A DNA stretch of 34,338 nt from Methanosarcinales archaeon. Its GTDB lineage: Archaea; Halobacteriota; Methanosarcinia; Methanosarcinales; Methanogasteraceae. Made by a program: the position numbers and the translations under genes. Positions 5,307 to 13,090 of the stretch are shown piece by piece. The stretch covers positions 1-34,338 of the forward strand of contig JAUVWP010000006.1 in assembly GCA_030604085.1 (NCBI GenBank), given 5' to 3'. The notes beneath the pieces were generated by a model. The model was not told where the DNA came from. It did not search any database and worked only from the letters and a program-made list of their open reading frames with translations. The number at the start of each line of letters is the position of its first letter. The stretch's first letter is position 1.

Positions 5307-6356
5307 ATGGACAAAATTGTAAAGAATTTATTGTGCGCTGCAATAATATTATTTGCAGCCATTTCGCTTGCATCTGCAACAGAGGTATTTATATATCCTG
5401 CACATCACCATCTTGGAGATGATTTTAAAGAAGAATTGACCCCGGGAGAACCGGAAGGTCTGGTTTACACCACCACTTTCAATCTGGATTCTCGGGCAGA
5501 TATAACGGGTGCGGAACTCAGATTGACAACTAAAAGCGTTGTCCCATGTCCGACCGATGAATTTTTGGACGAGGTTTACCTGAATGAAATGTGGATCGTG
5601 ACCCTTAACGACCATACCCCGGAACAAACTCCGGATGATGGCGCGATAGATATTGTAATCCCGGTTGATCCAAGCATTTTAAAATCCGGGATAAACACCA
5701 TAAGAATCACATCCGGAGGCGATGCGGAAGGAAGTAATTATGACGACTTTGAGTTTTACAACCTTCAACTAACGATATGGAAATCCGGAGGGGTCCTATC
5801 GGGCAGTGTCGCATACAAAGGCGAACCTGCCAGTTATGTATGGGTCCATATCTATCGTTACGGAACCGAGGAATTAGTGAGCTCTTGCATGACCGATGAA
5901 AACGGCTTTTATTCCATCGAACTCCCAAAGGGTGTTTATGGTGTCAAAGCAGAGCGATATGACAATCTGTATGGCGGTCATGCTTCAGATATCGAAAAGA
6001 TCGTGATTGCGGATTCAGATGTTTCGCTTGACCTGGAAATGTCCGATTTTGGAGGGTGGACAATAATCGTACTTCTTCTGGCACCTGTTGTGGTGTTCGC
6101 CTTGCACGGATTTGCTACTGCAATCACTGTGTACGTATTCACCAGGAAAAGAAAGTTGGCTGTGATCGGGTTCGTACTCGGGACAATAGCAGCGTTTGCT
6201 GTGCTTTTCCTGCTTTACCAGATCGGTGTTTCGGACATGTTAGAACGATGGACTCTGCTGCTATCAGCAGGCATTGTTATCGGTGTAGTTGCGGTTCCGA
6301 TCATCCTGCTTGAGCAAAAGAAACCCGGGGTGGCAGATGAGGTGAAAAGAGTATGA
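5307..6356 (+). CDS. Exported membrane protein with carboxypeptidase-regulatory-like (CNA-B type) domain and C-terminal TMs
   Basis: ATG at 5307 with aggaggcgg RBS; signal peptide; GVLSGSVAYKGEPASYVWVHIYRYGTEELVSSCMTDENGFYSIELPKGVYGV. Confidence 0.65.
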   Translation: MDKIVKNLLCAAIILFAAISLASATEVFIYPAHHHLGDDFKEELTPGEPEGLVYTTTFNLDSRADITGAELRLTTKSVVPCPTDEFLDEVYLNEMWIVTLNDHTPEQTPDDGAIDIVIPVDPSILKSGINTIRITSGGDAEGSNYDDFEFYNLQLTIWKSGGVLSGSVAYKGEPASYVWVHIYRYGTEELVSSCMTDENGFYSIELPKGVYGVKAERYDNLYGGHASDIEKIVIADSDVSLDLEMSDFGGWTIIVLLLAPVVVFALHGFATAITVYVFTRKRKLAVIGFVLGTIAAFAVLFLLYQIGVSDMLERWTLLLSAGIVIGVVAVPIILLEQKKPGVADEVKRV

Positions 6357-6991
6357 GAACAATCACAAAACTCGGAATCGGAATGCTTGCCGTGATCGTG
6401 CTGCTCTCCTGCGCATGGATGTATCACACCCACAGCCTTTATGAGGAGACGTACAGAAGCGAATACCGCTATGAGGTCACAGTAAGAACTGATTCGGTTC
6501 TGCAGAACGCAACATTTTACGTGCCGCTGCCGGCATCAGAAGATGGATCGAAGATCGGCGAAGAGATCATAGCAAAAAACGCCTCCATACCTGCTGGGTG
6601 GAACTGCGACCTCATCGAAACCGAGCATGGGACGATGTTGAAGATACACGCAGAGGGAATGATTCCTGATCGTTACACCCCTCCTGTGCCATTACCAGAA
6701 GAAGAGTGTGGTCCGGACGCAATTCCCTGCCCGGTTCAGACACATATGGTCAAATGGGTTTCGGTGAGGGTACATGCCGATCACGAGATAAACACAAAAA
6801 ACCCGGCTGGAAACGAGCCAATGCTCTCCCCGAAGTACAACCTTGCCAGTTCGGTCTACAGGATGCCGCATCCCAAAGACCGGACGCCTCCGGCATGTTA
6901 TGAATACGAGAGCCGCATCTATGCGAATTACACAGCATCAGCCGATGCGGAAATATCGATTCACGTTGAACTCACCGGAGAGAACATGTGA
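6353..6991 (+). CDS. Membrane-anchored exported protein of unknown function, possibly truncated by TGA
   Basis: ORF overlaps the preceding stop; N-terminal TM. The same frame continues past TGA (6989-6991) as WVYGWSGNKYMDRVGVMLTGAQDGWCAASGNLVTGEGRY to TGA at 7109-7111. Confidence 0.6.
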   Translation: MRTITKLGIGMLAVIVLLSCAWMYHTHSLYEETYRSEYRYEVTVRTDSVLQNATFYVPLPASEDGSKIGEEIIAKNASIPAGWNCDLIETEHGTMLKIHAEGMIPDRYTPPVPLPEEECGPDAIPCPVQTHMVKWVSVRVHADHEINTKNPAGNEPMLSPKYNLASSVYRMPHPKDRTPPACYEYESRIYANYTASADAEISIHVELTGENM

Positions 6992-7196
6992 TGGGTCTAC
7001 GGATGGTCTGGCAACAAGTACATGGATCGGGTCGGCGTGATGCTCACAGGAGCGCAGGACGGATGGTGTGCTGCATCAGGGAATCTTGTCACGGGAGAGG
7101 GCAGGTATTGAGATGCGAGGGGTGAATGTGATCGCCTGCACCGCACCCACCCGCTGACCGGATTGTGCGCGGGAGATGGGGTGCTTGTGAAGGGAT

Positions 7197-8564
7197 TCAA
7201 CCAATCTTCGACCTGAAATCCGAAAGATCCATGACCAGATAACCGGACTGCCTTAGATCCTCTTTTTTATCGATTGATTTCGCTATCAGTCCGAAGTCTT
7301 TCCTGTTCGAGTCCCATGACACGTGCTCTGACTTTTCTTCGAGTTTGCCAAGTTCCCTCTTTGCATCCCTTGGGCTCATATCCTTCCATTTACACTCGAT
7401 AAAGAGAATTTCCCTGCTCTTTTCATTCAATGCCACGAGATCGATCTCCTTGTCACGGTGCCACCACTTCCCGATGCGATCAAAACGATTTGATAGTGGA
7501 ATATAATTGAATAGATCATCCCTCACAAAAATTTCGAATCGTTTGCCAAGATAACTGGATAATTCGTCGTTGCGCAGGATAAATGCCCCTCTTTCCATCC
7601 GCTCCCTGTGTTTGTGAACGAAATTGAACCAGAAATCGAAGAGATTGTCCTTGATCGTATATATGCCCGCCTTTCCACTGCTCACGATCGGTACGGTTCT
7701 CTCGACGAAACCAAGTCGGATCAGGTTATCCAGATACGGATAAATCTTTCTTGCGTCGATTCCAACAGAGTTTGCTATCTCGCCGGGTCTTGTGCTGCCG
7801 TACGCGATCGCGTTTAAGATTGAGAAATATGTCTTCAGTTCTTTGAATTCCTGTGATATTATAAAATATGGCTCCCTGTAGAAATACCCATCCTTTCTGA
7901 AGAACTCAAGTTCTATAAAATCGGTGAACGTTTCATATTCCGCTGCTTTGAGCAGATATTCAGGCACCCCTCCGATTGTCATGTACAGTTTCGCACGATC
8001 CTCAAAGTTCATCCCGGAAAAATCACCGGTAAACGAAAAAGGCAGTTTATCTAGAAGAATGTCCCTGCTCCGCCGCCCATACAGCGGAGAAGACTGTGAT
8101 AGAACCTTCTCACTCATCAGACCGAGAAGGGAACCTGAAAGCACGATAAATATATTTGTATTCGAGAACTTCAGATCCCACAATCGCTGAAGCGTGCTCA
8201 GAATGGTCTTATCGCTCCGTATCATGTATGAAAACTCATCAATCACCAGATAGGTTCGTTTATCAGGAACATTTTTTACAAAATATTCAAATAGTTGATT
8301 CCAATCTTTAATCTCCAGTTGAGCGAGGAGCGGATCTCTGAGATACTCCGCCATCTTCTCTTTCAACTCTTCGATCTGCTGTTTTGGTGTGGAATCGGCA
8401 GCGATGTAGAATACCCCCTCGCGACCTCTGATGAATTCGAGGAGCAGTCGCGTCTTTCCGATCCTGCGCCGCCCGTACAGGACGATCAATCTCGCGCCGC
8501 TGCCCCCCCATTCCCTGTTGAGTAGTTTCAGTTCGGGTTCTCGATTTACGAATGTACTAATCAT
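7197..8564 (-). CDS. Archaeal AAA ATPase with wHTH and DUF234 PD-(D/E)XK-like domain
   Basis: NREPELKLLNREW, Walker A YGRRRIGKTRLLLEF, VIDEFSYM, wHTH (GEIANSVGIDARKIYPYLDNLIRLGFVER), C-terminal EIDLVALNEKSREILFIECKWK. Confidence 0.9.
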   Translation of the reverse strand: MISTFVNREPELKLLNREWGGSGARLIVLYGRRRIGKTRLLLEFIRGREGVFYIAADSTPKQQIEELKEKMAEYLRDPLLAQLEIKDWNQLFEYFVKNVPDKRTYLVIDEFSYMIRSDKTILSTLQRLWDLKFSNTNIFIVLSGSLLGLMSEKVLSQSSPLYGRRSRDILLDKLPFSFTGDFSGMNFEDRAKLYMTIGGVPEYLLKAAEYETFTDFIELEFFRKDGYFYREPYFIISQEFKELKTYFSILNAIAYGSTRPGEIANSVGIDARKIYPYLDNLIRLGFVERTVPIVSSGKAGIYTIKDNLFDFWFNFVHKHRERMERGAFILRNDELSSYLGKRFEIFVRDDLFNYIPLSNRFDRIGKWWHRDKEIDLVALNEKSREILFIECKWKDMSPRDAKRELGKLEEKSEHVSWDSNRKDFGLIAKSIDKKEDLRQSGYLVMDLSDFRSKIG

Positions 8565-8590
8565 AATTAGTACTAATTTGGATTAGTACT
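8554..8590. promoter_or_regulatory. Two adjoining palindromes over the ATPase start codon
   Basis: GTACTAAT-cata-ATTAGTAC (8554-8573) and AGTACTAAT-ttgg-ATTAGTACT (8569-8590). The minus-strand start codon (8562-8564) lies inside the first. Confidence 0.7.
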
Positions 8591-8707
8591 TAACAGTTTT
8601 CATCGGACAATAAGTCAGTCCGGACAGTCATTTGTAGAGGTGCCACATCTCGGGCATTGGCAGACCCTGCATGGGTGGAGAAGTGATCAATGATACTCCA
8701 TTTTTAA

Positions 8708-11302
8708 TCATTTTTGTGGTATTTTATCAAGCGGCATGCTTTCGATTTCCATTATTATACTTTCAGGATCCAACTTTTCCTGAGCTAATTCTTCTATAAT
8801 TTTAGATTGAATCTCTTCTTCATCATATGTTGTAAACTGGCTTCGAAGTCTTCTGTAAACTCCTGAAATCGATTCAAAAATTTCACGAACACGACTAATG
8901 TGCATAAAATAAAGATTTTTGGCAAAGGGCAAAGCTTGTTCATCAATTTTTTCCCTATGAGGGACTACAACTACATATTTTTTGTCAATTCTATCAAATG
9001 ATGATATTGAAGATTCTGCCCAATTATAATGATTATTTGCCTCTCTACAGGTACTAACTGAAATACCACCTTCTTTGTTTTCATCGCTTTTAGCCTCAAA
9101 TATAATTAGAATCGAATCACTAATTTGCCAAACACTATCAGGAGCAGCTTGGTTAGATGGATGATCGGTCACAAAGCCTAAGAGTTTCCCTAGTTTAGTC
9201 ACACCTTCTTCGAATTTTTTTGGAGTGTCGACACTAATTAAGTTTTCAATTCCCCCAATTTTTTCTTCAAAATTTGGACCAGTAAGACCGAATTTAATAA
9301 TATTTGTTTGAATATTCTCGGCGGATTGAATATTTGCTTTAGTTAAATTATCAATTGTTGGGATTTTTAATTCAGTTGGTAAAATCACATTAGAAAACCA
9401 ACTTCTTGTGTTAATGCAATTTACAGATCTATCGAAATTATCCTTCGCTAATTTTTCAAAGCCTTCATCGGGAAATGAATGCCATATTTGCCAAGCAATA
9501 CAACCCGCAAAATAGTACCATAAAGCACGATAGCCTTTAAAGTCGTCTCCAGATAATCTATCTATCACATTTTGTGCTGATGTTAAAGCATTATGGTAAT
9601 CTCCTTTCCACAAGTTGTATTGAAATTGAACTTCGTGCTTTACTACTTCCATCAAAGTTTCTGAACGTTTGTCATTTGAAACATTACAACCGTGCCGCAA
9701 GTCTTTGATTTCTTGGTCTGCCTCTTTCCATTCGTCTCCTTGTTGTAAAAACAATTCACATAATTCAGAGAGTTCATCAGTTTTGTCTACATTTGAATTT
9801 GCTAAACCAAATTTTATTTCTGCCTGTAATTCTGGATGCATAACTTCAACATTCTCTTTCCTTAAACAAACTTGATGAAGTGATTCTCCAACTAAAATAA
9901 CCAAAGAATAATCTCTAACCCCTCGTGTACATCGACCAGTGGCTTGAGTAAATCGGGTAATTATCCTATCTTTGAGTAGCGAGATGATTCTAAGTCGATT
10001 TAGAATAAATTTTTCTTGAAGGTTGGTGGCATCTGGATTACCAGCAATAATCATTTGACGGCATTCGTCATCTGGCAAATCAATCCCATCATACCTATTA
10101 GTGAGAATTAGCGCAGCTTTATTATTTTTAACGAATGGTTCTAAAGTATTTTCAATGTCTCCAGAATTCAAAATTGTAGTAGCATCACACACTTCTTTTA
10201 TACGTTCTTCCATTGTAAGTGCAATCTTGTTATTGGGACAAAGAACTATAGTTCGGTCAAAATCACAAATCCTACTAATTATCCAATGCCTATAATCTTT
10301 CGGAGCAAGAGATTGATCCGGGAATACAAAAAAACGTCTCCCAGAACCTTGTTTATCCCATCCAGCAGGCACGGGCAATCGATCAATCCTTTGAATACCT
10401 GTAATCCTCTCAAGTTCGCCACCCGCTCCTAAAGTCGCAGACATATAAATTCTCTGGTTCGAATTTGCGAACGGCAAATGAGTAAGAGTTGGTGGAATCC
10501 AAGGACGAATTAAAATTTTATTCCGCAAAATGAAAACGTTGCAAGCAGCTAAATTTTCTTTTATTAAACTCCATGAATATGAATATGAAGGATTCAGATC
10601 ATTTTCAATGAGTGATCTTAAGCTATCCAAACGCTCCCAAAGAGTTGGGGCTGGAATCATATCAACTGAATCGTCATGAATGTGTTCAGCACCTTCTTCT
10701 CGAATGGATTCCACGAGGAAAACTGATAATTTATCTTCAAATAAACTAATAATTTTTGCAAAAAGTGTCTTATGATCAAATGGATTTATTTCTACTGACC
10801 ACAAAGACGCGATATAATTTTCACCAGCGTGGGCATCATCTAATATTATAACATTAGAATCATTTAATTTTGGATTTGTATTAAATAAACCACTATATGT
10901 AGAAATCGCAATTGCTTTGCCAGATAAATATTCATTATACGCAGATATTGGATATTTGGACTGGCTTCCTACAAAAACATGGGATTTTAGACCATATTTG
11001 GAGGCATGCTTCTGTACTTGATAAGCTAATTGTTTAGTGGGGCATAAGTATAATATTCTTTCATTAAAAGCACGTCTTCTAAATTCACCAATTAAAAGTC
11101 CAACAAGTGTCTTTCCAGTACCAGTTGGCAATTCTATAGCTATATCATCAGATTTTAAATATTTGTTATTATATTCTCTTAAAATGTCTGCTTGATGAGA
11201 CCATAGACTCTTAATATCAGTGGAAATTACAGGCAGGTCACGAAAGAGCGACTCAGGGTCAGTCGGTATAGCGGATTTTGTTGAAACTTTTTTAAAGCCC
11301 AT
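8708..11302 (-). CDS. DEAD/DEAH-box helicase with C-terminal PD-(D/E)XK nuclease-like domain
   Basis: ELPTGTGKTLVGLL, VIILDDAHAG, MSATLGAGGELE, QATGRCTRGVRD; C-terminal EGVTKLGKLLGFVTDHPSNQAAPDSVWQISDSILIIFEAKSDE. MGFKK start at 11302 preferred over 11440 because the extra N-terminus overlaps the LCM remnant. Confidence 0.8.
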   Translation of the reverse strand: MGFKKVSTKSAIPTDPESLFRDLPVISTDIKSLWSHQADILREYNNKYLKSDDIAIELPTGTGKTLVGLLIGEFRRRAFNERILYLCPTKQLAYQVQKHASKYGLKSHVFVGSQSKYPISAYNEYLSGKAIAISTYSGLFNTNPKLNDSNVIILDDAHAGENYIASLWSVEINPFDHKTLFAKIISLFEDKLSVFLVESIREEGAEHIHDDSVDMIPAPTLWERLDSLRSLIENDLNPSYSYSWSLIKENLAACNVFILRNKILIRPWIPPTLTHLPFANSNQRIYMSATLGAGGELERITGIQRIDRLPVPAGWDKQGSGRRFFVFPDQSLAPKDYRHWIISRICDFDRTIVLCPNNKIALTMEERIKEVCDATTILNSGDIENTLEPFVKNNKAALILTNRYDGIDLPDDECRQMIIAGNPDATNLQEKFILNRLRIISLLKDRIITRFTQATGRCTRGVRDYSLVILVGESLHQVCLRKENVEVMHPELQAEIKFGLANSNVDKTDELSELCELFLQQGDEWKEADQEIKDLRHGCNVSNDKRSETLMEVVKHEVQFQYNLWKGDYHNALTSAQNVIDRLSGDDFKGYRALWYYFAGCIAWQIWHSFPDEGFEKLAKDNFDRSVNCINTRSWFSNVILPTELKIPTIDNLTKANIQSAENIQTNIIKFGLTGPNFEEKIGGIENLISVDTPKKFEEGVTKLGKLLGFVTDHPSNQAAPDSVWQISDSILIIFEAKSDENKEGGISVSTCREANNHYNWAESSISSFDRIDKKYVVVVPHREKIDEQALPFAKNLYFMHISRVREIFESISGVYRRLRSQFTTYDEEEIQSKIIEELAQEKLDPESIIMEIESMPLDKIPQK

Positions 11303-11345: not shown

Positions 11346-11904
11346 TCATTCAGATAGTATAAGAATATTTGCAAACGTGATTCCCGGAGTCCACGCTTCC
11401 ATCTCTCTGCTCTCTCTGATCCCGAAATGAAAAGTCGCATCCTTTCCGAGGTGCAGCTCCTTTCGCATCTTGAAATTGACCAGCCCTTTTAACGGCTTCT
11501 TCAGCCACAAATCATTAAAAACCTCCCATACAAGTTCTGAACCAGGAAATTCTGATTGAAGCTCGAGTACCAGTGATTTCACGTCCCCTCTGTGAAGGTA
11601 CATGAAAACATCCTCGGAAACATTGAGGAACGGACCATCACAGGTCTGCAAGAGCGGCGACATCCAGCCATAGTCCAGTAGTGAGGGGATACCGGTCAAT
11701 CTCCTCAAATAACCTCCTCTTGATCCCGATCACATCCGGCAGATCAAGGTCATAGAAACGCACTCGCCCATTGTCAATACGCGAAAAACGCTAATCCAGC
11801 CCGCACCCGATGTTGACCACGACCCCGTCCGGCGGGGACTTGAGAAACTCTGTTACATACTCGTCGTATCTCTTTGCACGAATCGCGATATGAACGAACT
11901 CCAT
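11346..11904 (-). pseudogene. LCM-family (class I SAM) O-methyltransferase remnant
   Basis: Minus-strand reading MEFVHIAIRAKRYDEYVTEFLKSPPDGVVVNIGCGLD*RFSRIDNGRVRFYDLDLPDVI..., TAG at 11791-11793, then a frameshift into IPSLLDYGWMSPLL...SEDVFMYL. Confidence 0.8.
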
Positions 11905-11961
11905 CCTGGCGAGGATATCGATAATCCGACCCCAGCATCTTAATTCCGCTTACGCAAGTGT

Positions 11962-12534
11962 TTACGCCTGCCCCCGCGACTCTCCGCACACGATTCCTGT
12001 TGCGATCAGGTGCGCGATACGGAGCGGCTCAGGGATGTGGCTGTGGGTCGTTGCGAGTTGCACGATCTTCCTTGCATCCACTATCTCGATTCCTGCGCAC
12101 TGAATATACAGCAGATTGCCATGCACATCGATCTCATATATCCTGCCGGCGTTTTGGATGGCGTGCCACCTGCTGTCAAAACCGGGAAGATTCTGCATCG
12201 CATCCCTGATCCGCCCCATATCCGGCTCGGCACGCATCACAACGATTACAGGCAGCCCGGTTCGCCTCTGCAACTCGGTTATGTCAACCACATTGAACCC
12301 GCCGTAGGTCACGCCATCGAGCATGATCACGCGGATCTGCGGGTAATGACGGATCGCAGTCACCATCTCCGCGATCACATCGGTTGCGTCCAGCCCGTCC
12401 CGTGTGACCTCTGCCCTGAGCACGCCATCCATCCATTCCCCGCCCCGGAAGACCACGCCGACGATCATGATGCGCTCGCTCACAAGCGCGGAATCATCGA
12501 TTGCGAGGATCCGGATCTCCGGTTTGATGTGCAC
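11962..12534 (-). CDS. DUF99 family protein
   Basis: KPEIRILAIDDSA..VGVVFRGGEWMDGVLRAEVTRDGLDATD; MLDGVTYGGFNVVDI. Confidence 0.85.
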   Translation of the reverse strand: MHIKPEIRILAIDDSALVSERIMIVGVVFRGGEWMDGVLRAEVTRDGLDATDVIAEMVTAIRHYPQIRVIMLDGVTYGGFNVVDITELQRRTGLPVIVVMRAEPDMGRIRDAMQNLPGFDSRWHAIQNAGRIYEIDVHGNLLYIQCAGIEIVDARKIVQLATTHSHIPEPLRIAHLIATGIVCGESRGQA

Positions 12535-13003
12535 GGTATTTCACCTTCTCAACCACCCTGATATCCATTATCGCGGTATCCGGGTAATTCCCGGTCTCGT
12601 CCTTCTCTGCGGACTTGACCATGTCCCAGATCGTTAAAAGGCAGGCGCTCACCCCGGAGAGCGCTTCCATCTCAACTCCGGTGCGCCCGACCGACTTCAC
12701 CTCCACGAGCGCATGGATCGCATCGTCAGTAACCTCGAAATTGACATCGATTCCTGTGATCGGGATCTGGTGGCACATCGGGATCGTGGACGGAGTCTCC
12801 TTGACCGCCATTATAGCGGCGACCCTTGCTGTTGCAAGCACGTTTCCTTTCTCGACGCTGCCTCTATTGATTGCTGCGATCGTCTCCCGTCTGAGCGCGA
12901 TTCTGCCGGTTGCAACAGCGCGTCTGGTGATCGCGTCCTTTCCGCTGATGTCTACCATCGCTGCACGGTCGTCTGTGATGTGAGTGAATATCGGATTGCT
13001 CAT
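12494..13003 (-). CDS. moaC: Cyclic pyranopterin monophosphate synthase MoaC
   Basis: MVDISGKDAITRRAVATGRI; AAIMAVKETPSTIPMCHQIPITG; VKSVGRTGVEMEALSGVSACLLTIWDM. Confidence 0.95.
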   Translation of the reverse strand: MSNPIFTHITDDRAAMVDISGKDAITRRAVATGRIALRRETIAAINRGSVEKGNVLATARVAAIMAVKETPSTIPMCHQIPITGIDVNFEVTDDAIHALVEVKSVGRTGVEMEALSGVSACLLTIWDMVKSAEKDETGNYPDTAIMDIRVVEKVKYRAHQTGDPDPRNR

Positions 13004-13090
13004 GGTCGGAACTATCTGAAAGCTCAGTGGTATTCAAACTTTTTATCGATCCAGCACTTCCGAATCAAACCGCTCTTCCTCGCCTCGAAT

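What the first reader, a model, noticed from the sequence alone, without database searches (positions are those of the whole stretch)
8708..11302. Helicase with C-terminal PD-(D/E)XK-like domain: candidate single-gene defence protein
SF2 helicase motifs are followed by a ~200-aa helical region and then FEEGVTKLGKLLGFVTDHPSNQAAPDSVWQISDSILIIFEAKSDE, a good fit to a D...ExK nuclease core. The gene is visibly AT-richer than its neighbours and lies next to a decayed methyltransferase and a DUF234 ATPase, as expected for acquired DNA.
Basis: partly seen in the sequence, partly recalled or inferred. Interest (0 to 1): 0.65.

Follow-up and report, generated by a model that had tools for sequence, protein, structure and literature searches.

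The report
Archaeal Hna-family antiviral helicase-nuclease

Summary
In detail: window 8708-11302 (-) encodes an intact 864-aa protein with an SF2 helicase, a helical linker and a C-terminal PD-(D/E)XK nuclease. It belongs to a known family. It matches PADLOC candidate PDC-S28 along its full length (E 1e-126), and Sinorhizobium meliloti Hna, an experimentally studied single-gene abortive-infection system, matches the same models (1020 bits). AlphaFold (pLDDT 88.9) puts the Hna cryo-EM structures first among solved folds (E 1.5e-39), ahead of XPD/DinG. The catalytic P/D/E/K residues align (P721, D722, E736, K738). The gene is acquired DNA: 34.8% GC in a 46.7% GC window; family members in 11 of 186 genomes of the order and none of its 16 searched genus and family relatives; in a congener the flanks are collinear but an unrelated gene sits there; the closest copy, in another family, shows nucleotide homology over the gene alone. 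It falls in a branch diverged from S. meliloti Hna (22% identity) in which the studied dimer-interface and ATP-site residues are mostly not conserved. Best reading: an archaeal single-gene DNA-degrading antiviral effector working like Hna. Activity and trigger are inferred. New member of a known kind.

The parts
8708..11302 (-). hna-family gene (PDC-S28), 864 aa, intact
   Evidence: ORF and translation; PADLOC PDLC04987 E 1.2e-126 over residues 5-859; best PDB sequence match 10uj/9yhn/9ykj = Hna, E 8.9e-38
11192..11221 (-). Residues 28-37, equivalent of the S. meliloti Hna dimer loop and Q-motif (TDIKSLWSHQ; Q37 = Hna Q39)
   Evidence: Hna T30/D31/P34/R36/Q39 align with T28/D29/S32/W34/Q37; only the Q is conserved in the branch
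11108..11131 (-). Walker A, residues 58-65 LPTGTGKT
   Evidence: G61, G63, K64, T65 invariant in all 42 rows with residues there; Pfam DEAD/ResIII
10829..10840 (-). Motif II DDAH, residues 155-158
   Evidence: D155, D156 and H158 invariant in the 42 rows with residues there
9233..9835 (-). All-helical region between helicase and nuclease, residues about 490-690
   Evidence: AlphaFold model secondary structure
8903..9235 (-). PD-(D/E)XK nuclease domain, residues about 690-800
   Evidence: [quoted passage not shown] Hna monomer 9yhn is the top fold match
9089..9142 (-). Nuclease active-site motif P721-D722...E736-x-K738
   Evidence: Aligns with Hna P712/D713/E727/K729; the paper reports that K729A abolishes cleavage (PMC13381803)
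8697..11372 (-). Acquired block holding only the hna gene; outside it the DNA is collinear with a congener
   Evidence: Junction alignments with G004 and G006: homology resumes left of about 8697 and right of about 11372
11373..11926 (-). Remnant of an LCM-family (PF04072) methyltransferase gene: in-frame stop, frame change, 3' end replaced by the hna block
   Evidence: PF04072 E 8.2e-08 for the 5' piece; homologous piece with its own 3' end in G004/G006
7197..8564 (-). DUF234 AAA ATPase, PADLOC PDC-S27 candidate; neighbour, not part of the same acquisition
   Evidence: Pfam, PADLOC PDC-S27 E 2.3e-43; 95% identical copy at the same site in G004, which lacks hna

Best explanation
The gene encodes an archaeal member of the Hna family: a stand-alone antiviral helicase-nuclease. 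Inferred mechanism, by analogy with S. meliloti Hna: in an uninfected cell the ATP-bound helicase part holds the C-terminal nuclease inactive; an invader-derived signal (for S. [quoted passage not shown] the nuclease then degrades DNA with single-stranded 3' ends and the infection aborts. Shown here: domain architecture, intact catalytic residues, fold, family membership, purifying selection, horizontal acquisition. Inferred: nuclease activity, ATP inhibition, trigger, antiviral effect in this archaeon. The confidence refers to an Hna-family antiviral nuclease; the exact switch is less certain.
For: Full-length PADLOC PDC-S28 match, to which S. meliloti Hna itself scores 1020 bits. The best sequence match among solved structures is Hna, and the top three fold matches are Hna monomer/dimer, E 1.5e-39, 1.5e-28 and 6e-17, against 8.1e-13 for the best XPD. 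Catalytic P/D/E/K present. dN/dS 0.19-0.28 against the two closest relatives. Patchy: 11 of 186 genomes in the order, 0 of the 16 searched in the same genus or family. Site occupied by an unrelated ORF in a congener. Nucleotide homology to a copy in another family covers only the gene. Homologues in 230 plasmid records and 33 virus-contig loci; type I restriction-modification genes recur beside homologues.
Against: Only 22% identity to the one characterised Hna. Of the dimer-loop residues mutated in the Hna study, T and D are present here but P34 is S32 and the ATP-site R36 is W34, and none of these four is conserved in the branch, so the regulatory switch may differ. I found no experiment on this branch or on any archaeal member in the literature I could search. 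The trigger in an archaeal virus is unknown.
Confidence: 0.82

Rival explanations
1. A DNA repair helicase of the XPD/DinG kind with a fused nuclease, serving the host's own replication or repair.
For: XPD and DinG are the next fold matches (E about 1e-12); weak hits to Hef, DinG and rad3 models.
Against: Absent from nearly all relatives; site polymorphic; AT-rich; homologues on mobile elements; no cysteine between residues 87 and 254, so no four-cysteine iron-sulphur cluster as in XPD/DinG; Hna matches far better.
Confidence: 0.06
2. A defence protein of the same family and fold but with a different control logic from S. meliloti Hna: for example a helicase-coupled, target-directed nuclease rather than an ATP-inhibited abortive-infection effector.
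For: The dimer-loop and ATP-site residues studied in S. meliloti Hna are not conserved in this branch; K738 is H or Y in 18 of 43 members; a deep split separates the two branches.
Against: Same full-length architecture, fold and catalytic core; even within the S. meliloti branch the dimer residues vary (L027, L033).
Confidence: 0.25
3. A two-gene system with the neighbouring DUF234 ATPase (PDC-S27).
For: Same strand, 143 bp apart, and both are PADLOC defence candidates.
Against: The ATPase is at the same site in congener G004 without hna; in the annotated plasmid records I opened, no neighbour of an hna homologue is annotated as a DUF234 ATPase.
Confidence: 0.04

Closest known systems
Hna of Sinorhizobium meliloti (SMa2245; PDB 9yhn, 9ykj, 10uj; Sather et al. 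2023; PMC13381803)
   Same: Single gene, two SF2 helicase domains, helical linker, C-terminal PD-(D/E)XK nuclease with P/D/E/K, no Fe-S cluster; top fold and sequence match
   Different: 22% identity, other main branch of the family; P34 and R36 equivalents are S32 and W34; archaeal host; trigger unknown
PADLOC candidate PDC-S28
   Same: Full-length match to both models (422 and 379 bits)
   Different: Nothing that excludes it; it is a computational candidate label that covers Hna itself
DinG / ExoDinG / XPD helicases
   Same: SF2 helicase core; the Hna paper notes resemblance to ExoDinG 3'-5' exonucleases (PMC13381803)
   Different: XPD and canonical DinG carry Fe-S clusters (own knowledge and PMC13381803); much weaker fold score
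Other helicase-nuclease defence systems: Hachiman, Gabija, Nhi, Cas3, CasDinG
   Same: Helicase coupled to a nuclease for antiviral defence; weak helicase-domain hits to HamB, Cas3 and type IV DinG
   Different: The hits are confined to the helicase part and weak; different nucleases or partner genes

Membership tests
Hna (PDC-S28) | Full-length sequence similarity across helicase and nuclease parts | tested here: met
   PDLC04987 E 1.2e-126 over residues 5-859; S. meliloti Hna hits the same models; phmmer to Hna E 8.9e-38
Hna (PDC-S28) | PD-(D/E)XK nuclease with catalytic P712/D713/E727/K729 | tested here: met
   P721/D722/E736/K738 aligned; core topology in the model
Hna (PDC-S28) | Hna three-dimensional fold | tested here: met
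   Top three Foldseek matches are Hna 9yhn and 9ykj
Hna (PDC-S28) | SF2 helicase without the DinG/XPD iron-sulphur cluster | tested here: met
   No cysteine between residues 87 and 254
Hna (PDC-S28) | Single-gene system, horizontally mobile | tested here: met
   Acquired block holds only this gene; plasmid and virus-contig homologues
Hna (PDC-S28) | ATP-stabilised autoinhibitory dimer through T30/D31/P34 | tested here: inconclusive
   Residues are T28/D29/S32 here and not conserved in the branch; also variable within the S. meliloti branch. Dimerisation itself cannot be tested with these tools
[quoted passage not shown]
   Needs biochemistry
Hna (PDC-S28) | Abortive infection triggered by a phage SSB | not testable with these tools
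   Needs a virus-host assay
XPD/DinG repair helicase | Four-cysteine iron-sulphur domain | tested here: not met
   Cysteine positions
Hachiman (HamAB) | HamB helicase with a separate HamA nuclease gene | tested here: not met
   Only a weak helicase-domain hit to HamB (E 0.0017); the nuclease is fused in the same protein

The most novel reading that the evidence does not exclude
The branch that holds this protein (archaeal copies plus Firmicutes, cyanobacteria, proteobacteria and others) is a second functional class of Hna with a different switch: without the residues studied in S. meliloti Hna's dimer and ATP sites it may sense a different invader signal, in archaea an archaeal-virus replication protein, and tailed viruses may carry it against rivals (L115).
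Probability: 0.3. Interest if true: 0.55.

Novelty: new member of a known kind. Interest (0 to 1): 0.33.

Why it matters
It places an Hna-type system in Methanosarcinales-related archaea, with a mobile single-gene history and apparent transfer between archaeal families. The one archaeal defence survey I could read does not name Hna in its main text (PMC12988326). Because the studied switch residues are not conserved in this branch, it offers a direct test of whether ATP-inhibited dimerisation is general to the family.

Tried and rejected
A first viral-contig scan with the single protein found nothing; the profile scan worked. The idea that the DUF234 ATPase is a partner was dropped after finding it at the same site without hna. 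The idea that the decayed methyltransferase shows a lost restriction-modification system was dropped: it is PF04072 LCM. The DDE transposase seen in the nearest copy (L072) was checked for a link to the window block: none, the homology covers the gene only. The unrelated 301-aa gene that replaces hna in G004 has no Pfam or PADLOC match. A host for the virus contig L115 could not be fixed from its terminase. Sather et al. 2023 is not held in the library, so statements about it come through PMC13381803 and PMC12445080.

Full report
What is there. The minus-strand ORF 11302-8708 is open and encodes 864 aa. Pfam finds DEAD/ResIII at residues 32-161 and Helicase_C_2 at 349-481. PADLOC gives PDC-S28 over residues 5-859, E 1.2e-126. 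The best solved-structure match by sequence is an 845-aa protein in entries 10uj, 9yhn and 9ykj, E 8.9e-38; a literature search ties 9ykj and 10uj to Hna, the helicase-nuclease abortive-infection protein of Sinorhizobium meliloti (PMC13381803).

Is it the same family? I took S. meliloti Hna from pSymA (L028:3830-6367) and scanned it: it matches PDC-S28 at 1020 bits, so PDC-S28 and Hna are one family. The two proteins align along their length at 22% identity. Hna's P712, D713, E727 and K729, which the paper mutates, align with P721, D722, E736 and K738. Across 43 homologues of this branch P721, D722 and E736 are invariant, whereas K738 is K in 25, H in 15 and Y in 3.

Fold. [quoted passage not shown] Foldseek ranks the Hna monomer (E 1.5e-39) and the two Hna dimer chains (1.5e-28, 6.0e-17) first; the best XPD is 8.1e-13.

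Host. The window is contig C100 of a 2.0-Mb, 181-contig genome that encodes McrA. A genome of the same order has a contig that equals a Candidatus Methanoperedens record in length and match position (G029:C8 and L035), so the host is a Methanosarcinales-related archaeon. I did not fix the genus.

Acquired DNA. The gene is 34.8% GC, the window 46.7%. PDC-S28 proteins at E <= 1e-30 occur in 11 of 186 genomes of the order and in none of the seven searched in the same genus or nine in the same family; most of those 16 are incomplete, so single absences are weak. In congener G004, window 7152-8695 and 11906-13057 are collinear at 95% and 93%, but between them hna is replaced by an unrelated AT-rich 301-aa gene (30.8% GC). 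The methyltransferase gene next to it loses its 3' end at about 11372 in the window but keeps it in G004 and G006. The closest copy (L072, coordinates matching G184, another family of the order) is 83-84% identical in nucleotides over 11332-8703 only, that is, the gene alone; at the protein level hna is 76-77% identical while MoaC, a conserved housekeeping protein, is 68% identical. This points to transfer between families; one housekeeping gene is a thin yardstick.

Selection and decay. dN/dS is 0.28 against L072 and 0.19 against L035, so the gene has been maintained. Yet L072 is split by a DDE transposase, G026 has in-frame stops and a frame change, and G029 is cut by a contig end.

Family tree. 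In a 59-protein tree (quick IQ-TREE, SH-aLRT only, midpoint root) S. meliloti Hna falls with four plasmid proteins on one side and the window protein with all other rows on the other. The archaeal copies (Methanoperedens, Methanosarcinaceae, Methanolobus, GoM-Arc1, Bathycorpusculum, Thermoplasmata) plus one virus contig form one group (support 98) among bacterial sequences. Methanosarcinales also carry the S. meliloti-type branch (G065, G073, G076, G140; 35-36% to S. meliloti Hna), so the order has received both.

Context elsewhere. tblastn finds homologues in 230 plasmid records, 165 of which are typed conjugative or mobilizable. Among 124 neighbour ORFs of 31 homologues, type I specificity subunits match 7 and type I methyltransferases 9. 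No random-gene control was run for that count.

How it probably works. By analogy with PMC13381803: ATP binding holds Hna as an autoinhibited dimer, a phage SSB breaks the dimer, and the nuclease degrades 3' single-stranded DNA, with host death or dormancy. For the window protein the catalytic parts are shown; the switch is inferred, and the equivalents of Hna P34 and R36 are S32 and W34, with only the Q-motif glutamine conserved in the branch.

Known or new. An archaeal defence survey (7747 genomes) does not mention Hna in its main text but lists the neighbour's family, PDC-S27, as enriched in archaea.

Noticed in passing
L115:1678-9657 (IMGVR_UViG_3300042902_000350): A tailed-virus contig carries an hna homologue (50% to the window protein, sister of a Methanolobus copy) between its terminase large subunit and portal genes. 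Host not determined.
   Followed up: partly
L072:5268-9147 (Methanosarcinaceae archaeon CSMAG_2493): The closest hna copy is interrupted by a DDE transposase ORF at 6319-7482.
   Followed up: yes
L164:2646-3551 (same-genus genome G004): An unrelated AT-rich 301-aa gene, apparently with several membrane segments, occupies the hna site; no Pfam or PADLOC match.
   Followed up: partly
window 7197-8564: DUF234 ATPase matching PDC-S27; its C-terminus holds EID...ECK, resembling a second PD-(D/E)XK core.
   Followed up: partly
Alignment A2, column of P0001 K738: The nuclease lysine is H in 15 and Y in 3 of 43 homologues, so part of the branch may use another residue there.
   Followed up: no
L029:2845-5379 (Lactococcus lactis pMRC01): pMRC01 carries an S. 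meliloti-type hna homologue; from memory this plasmid has a phage-resistance phenotype, which this gene might explain.
   Followed up: no
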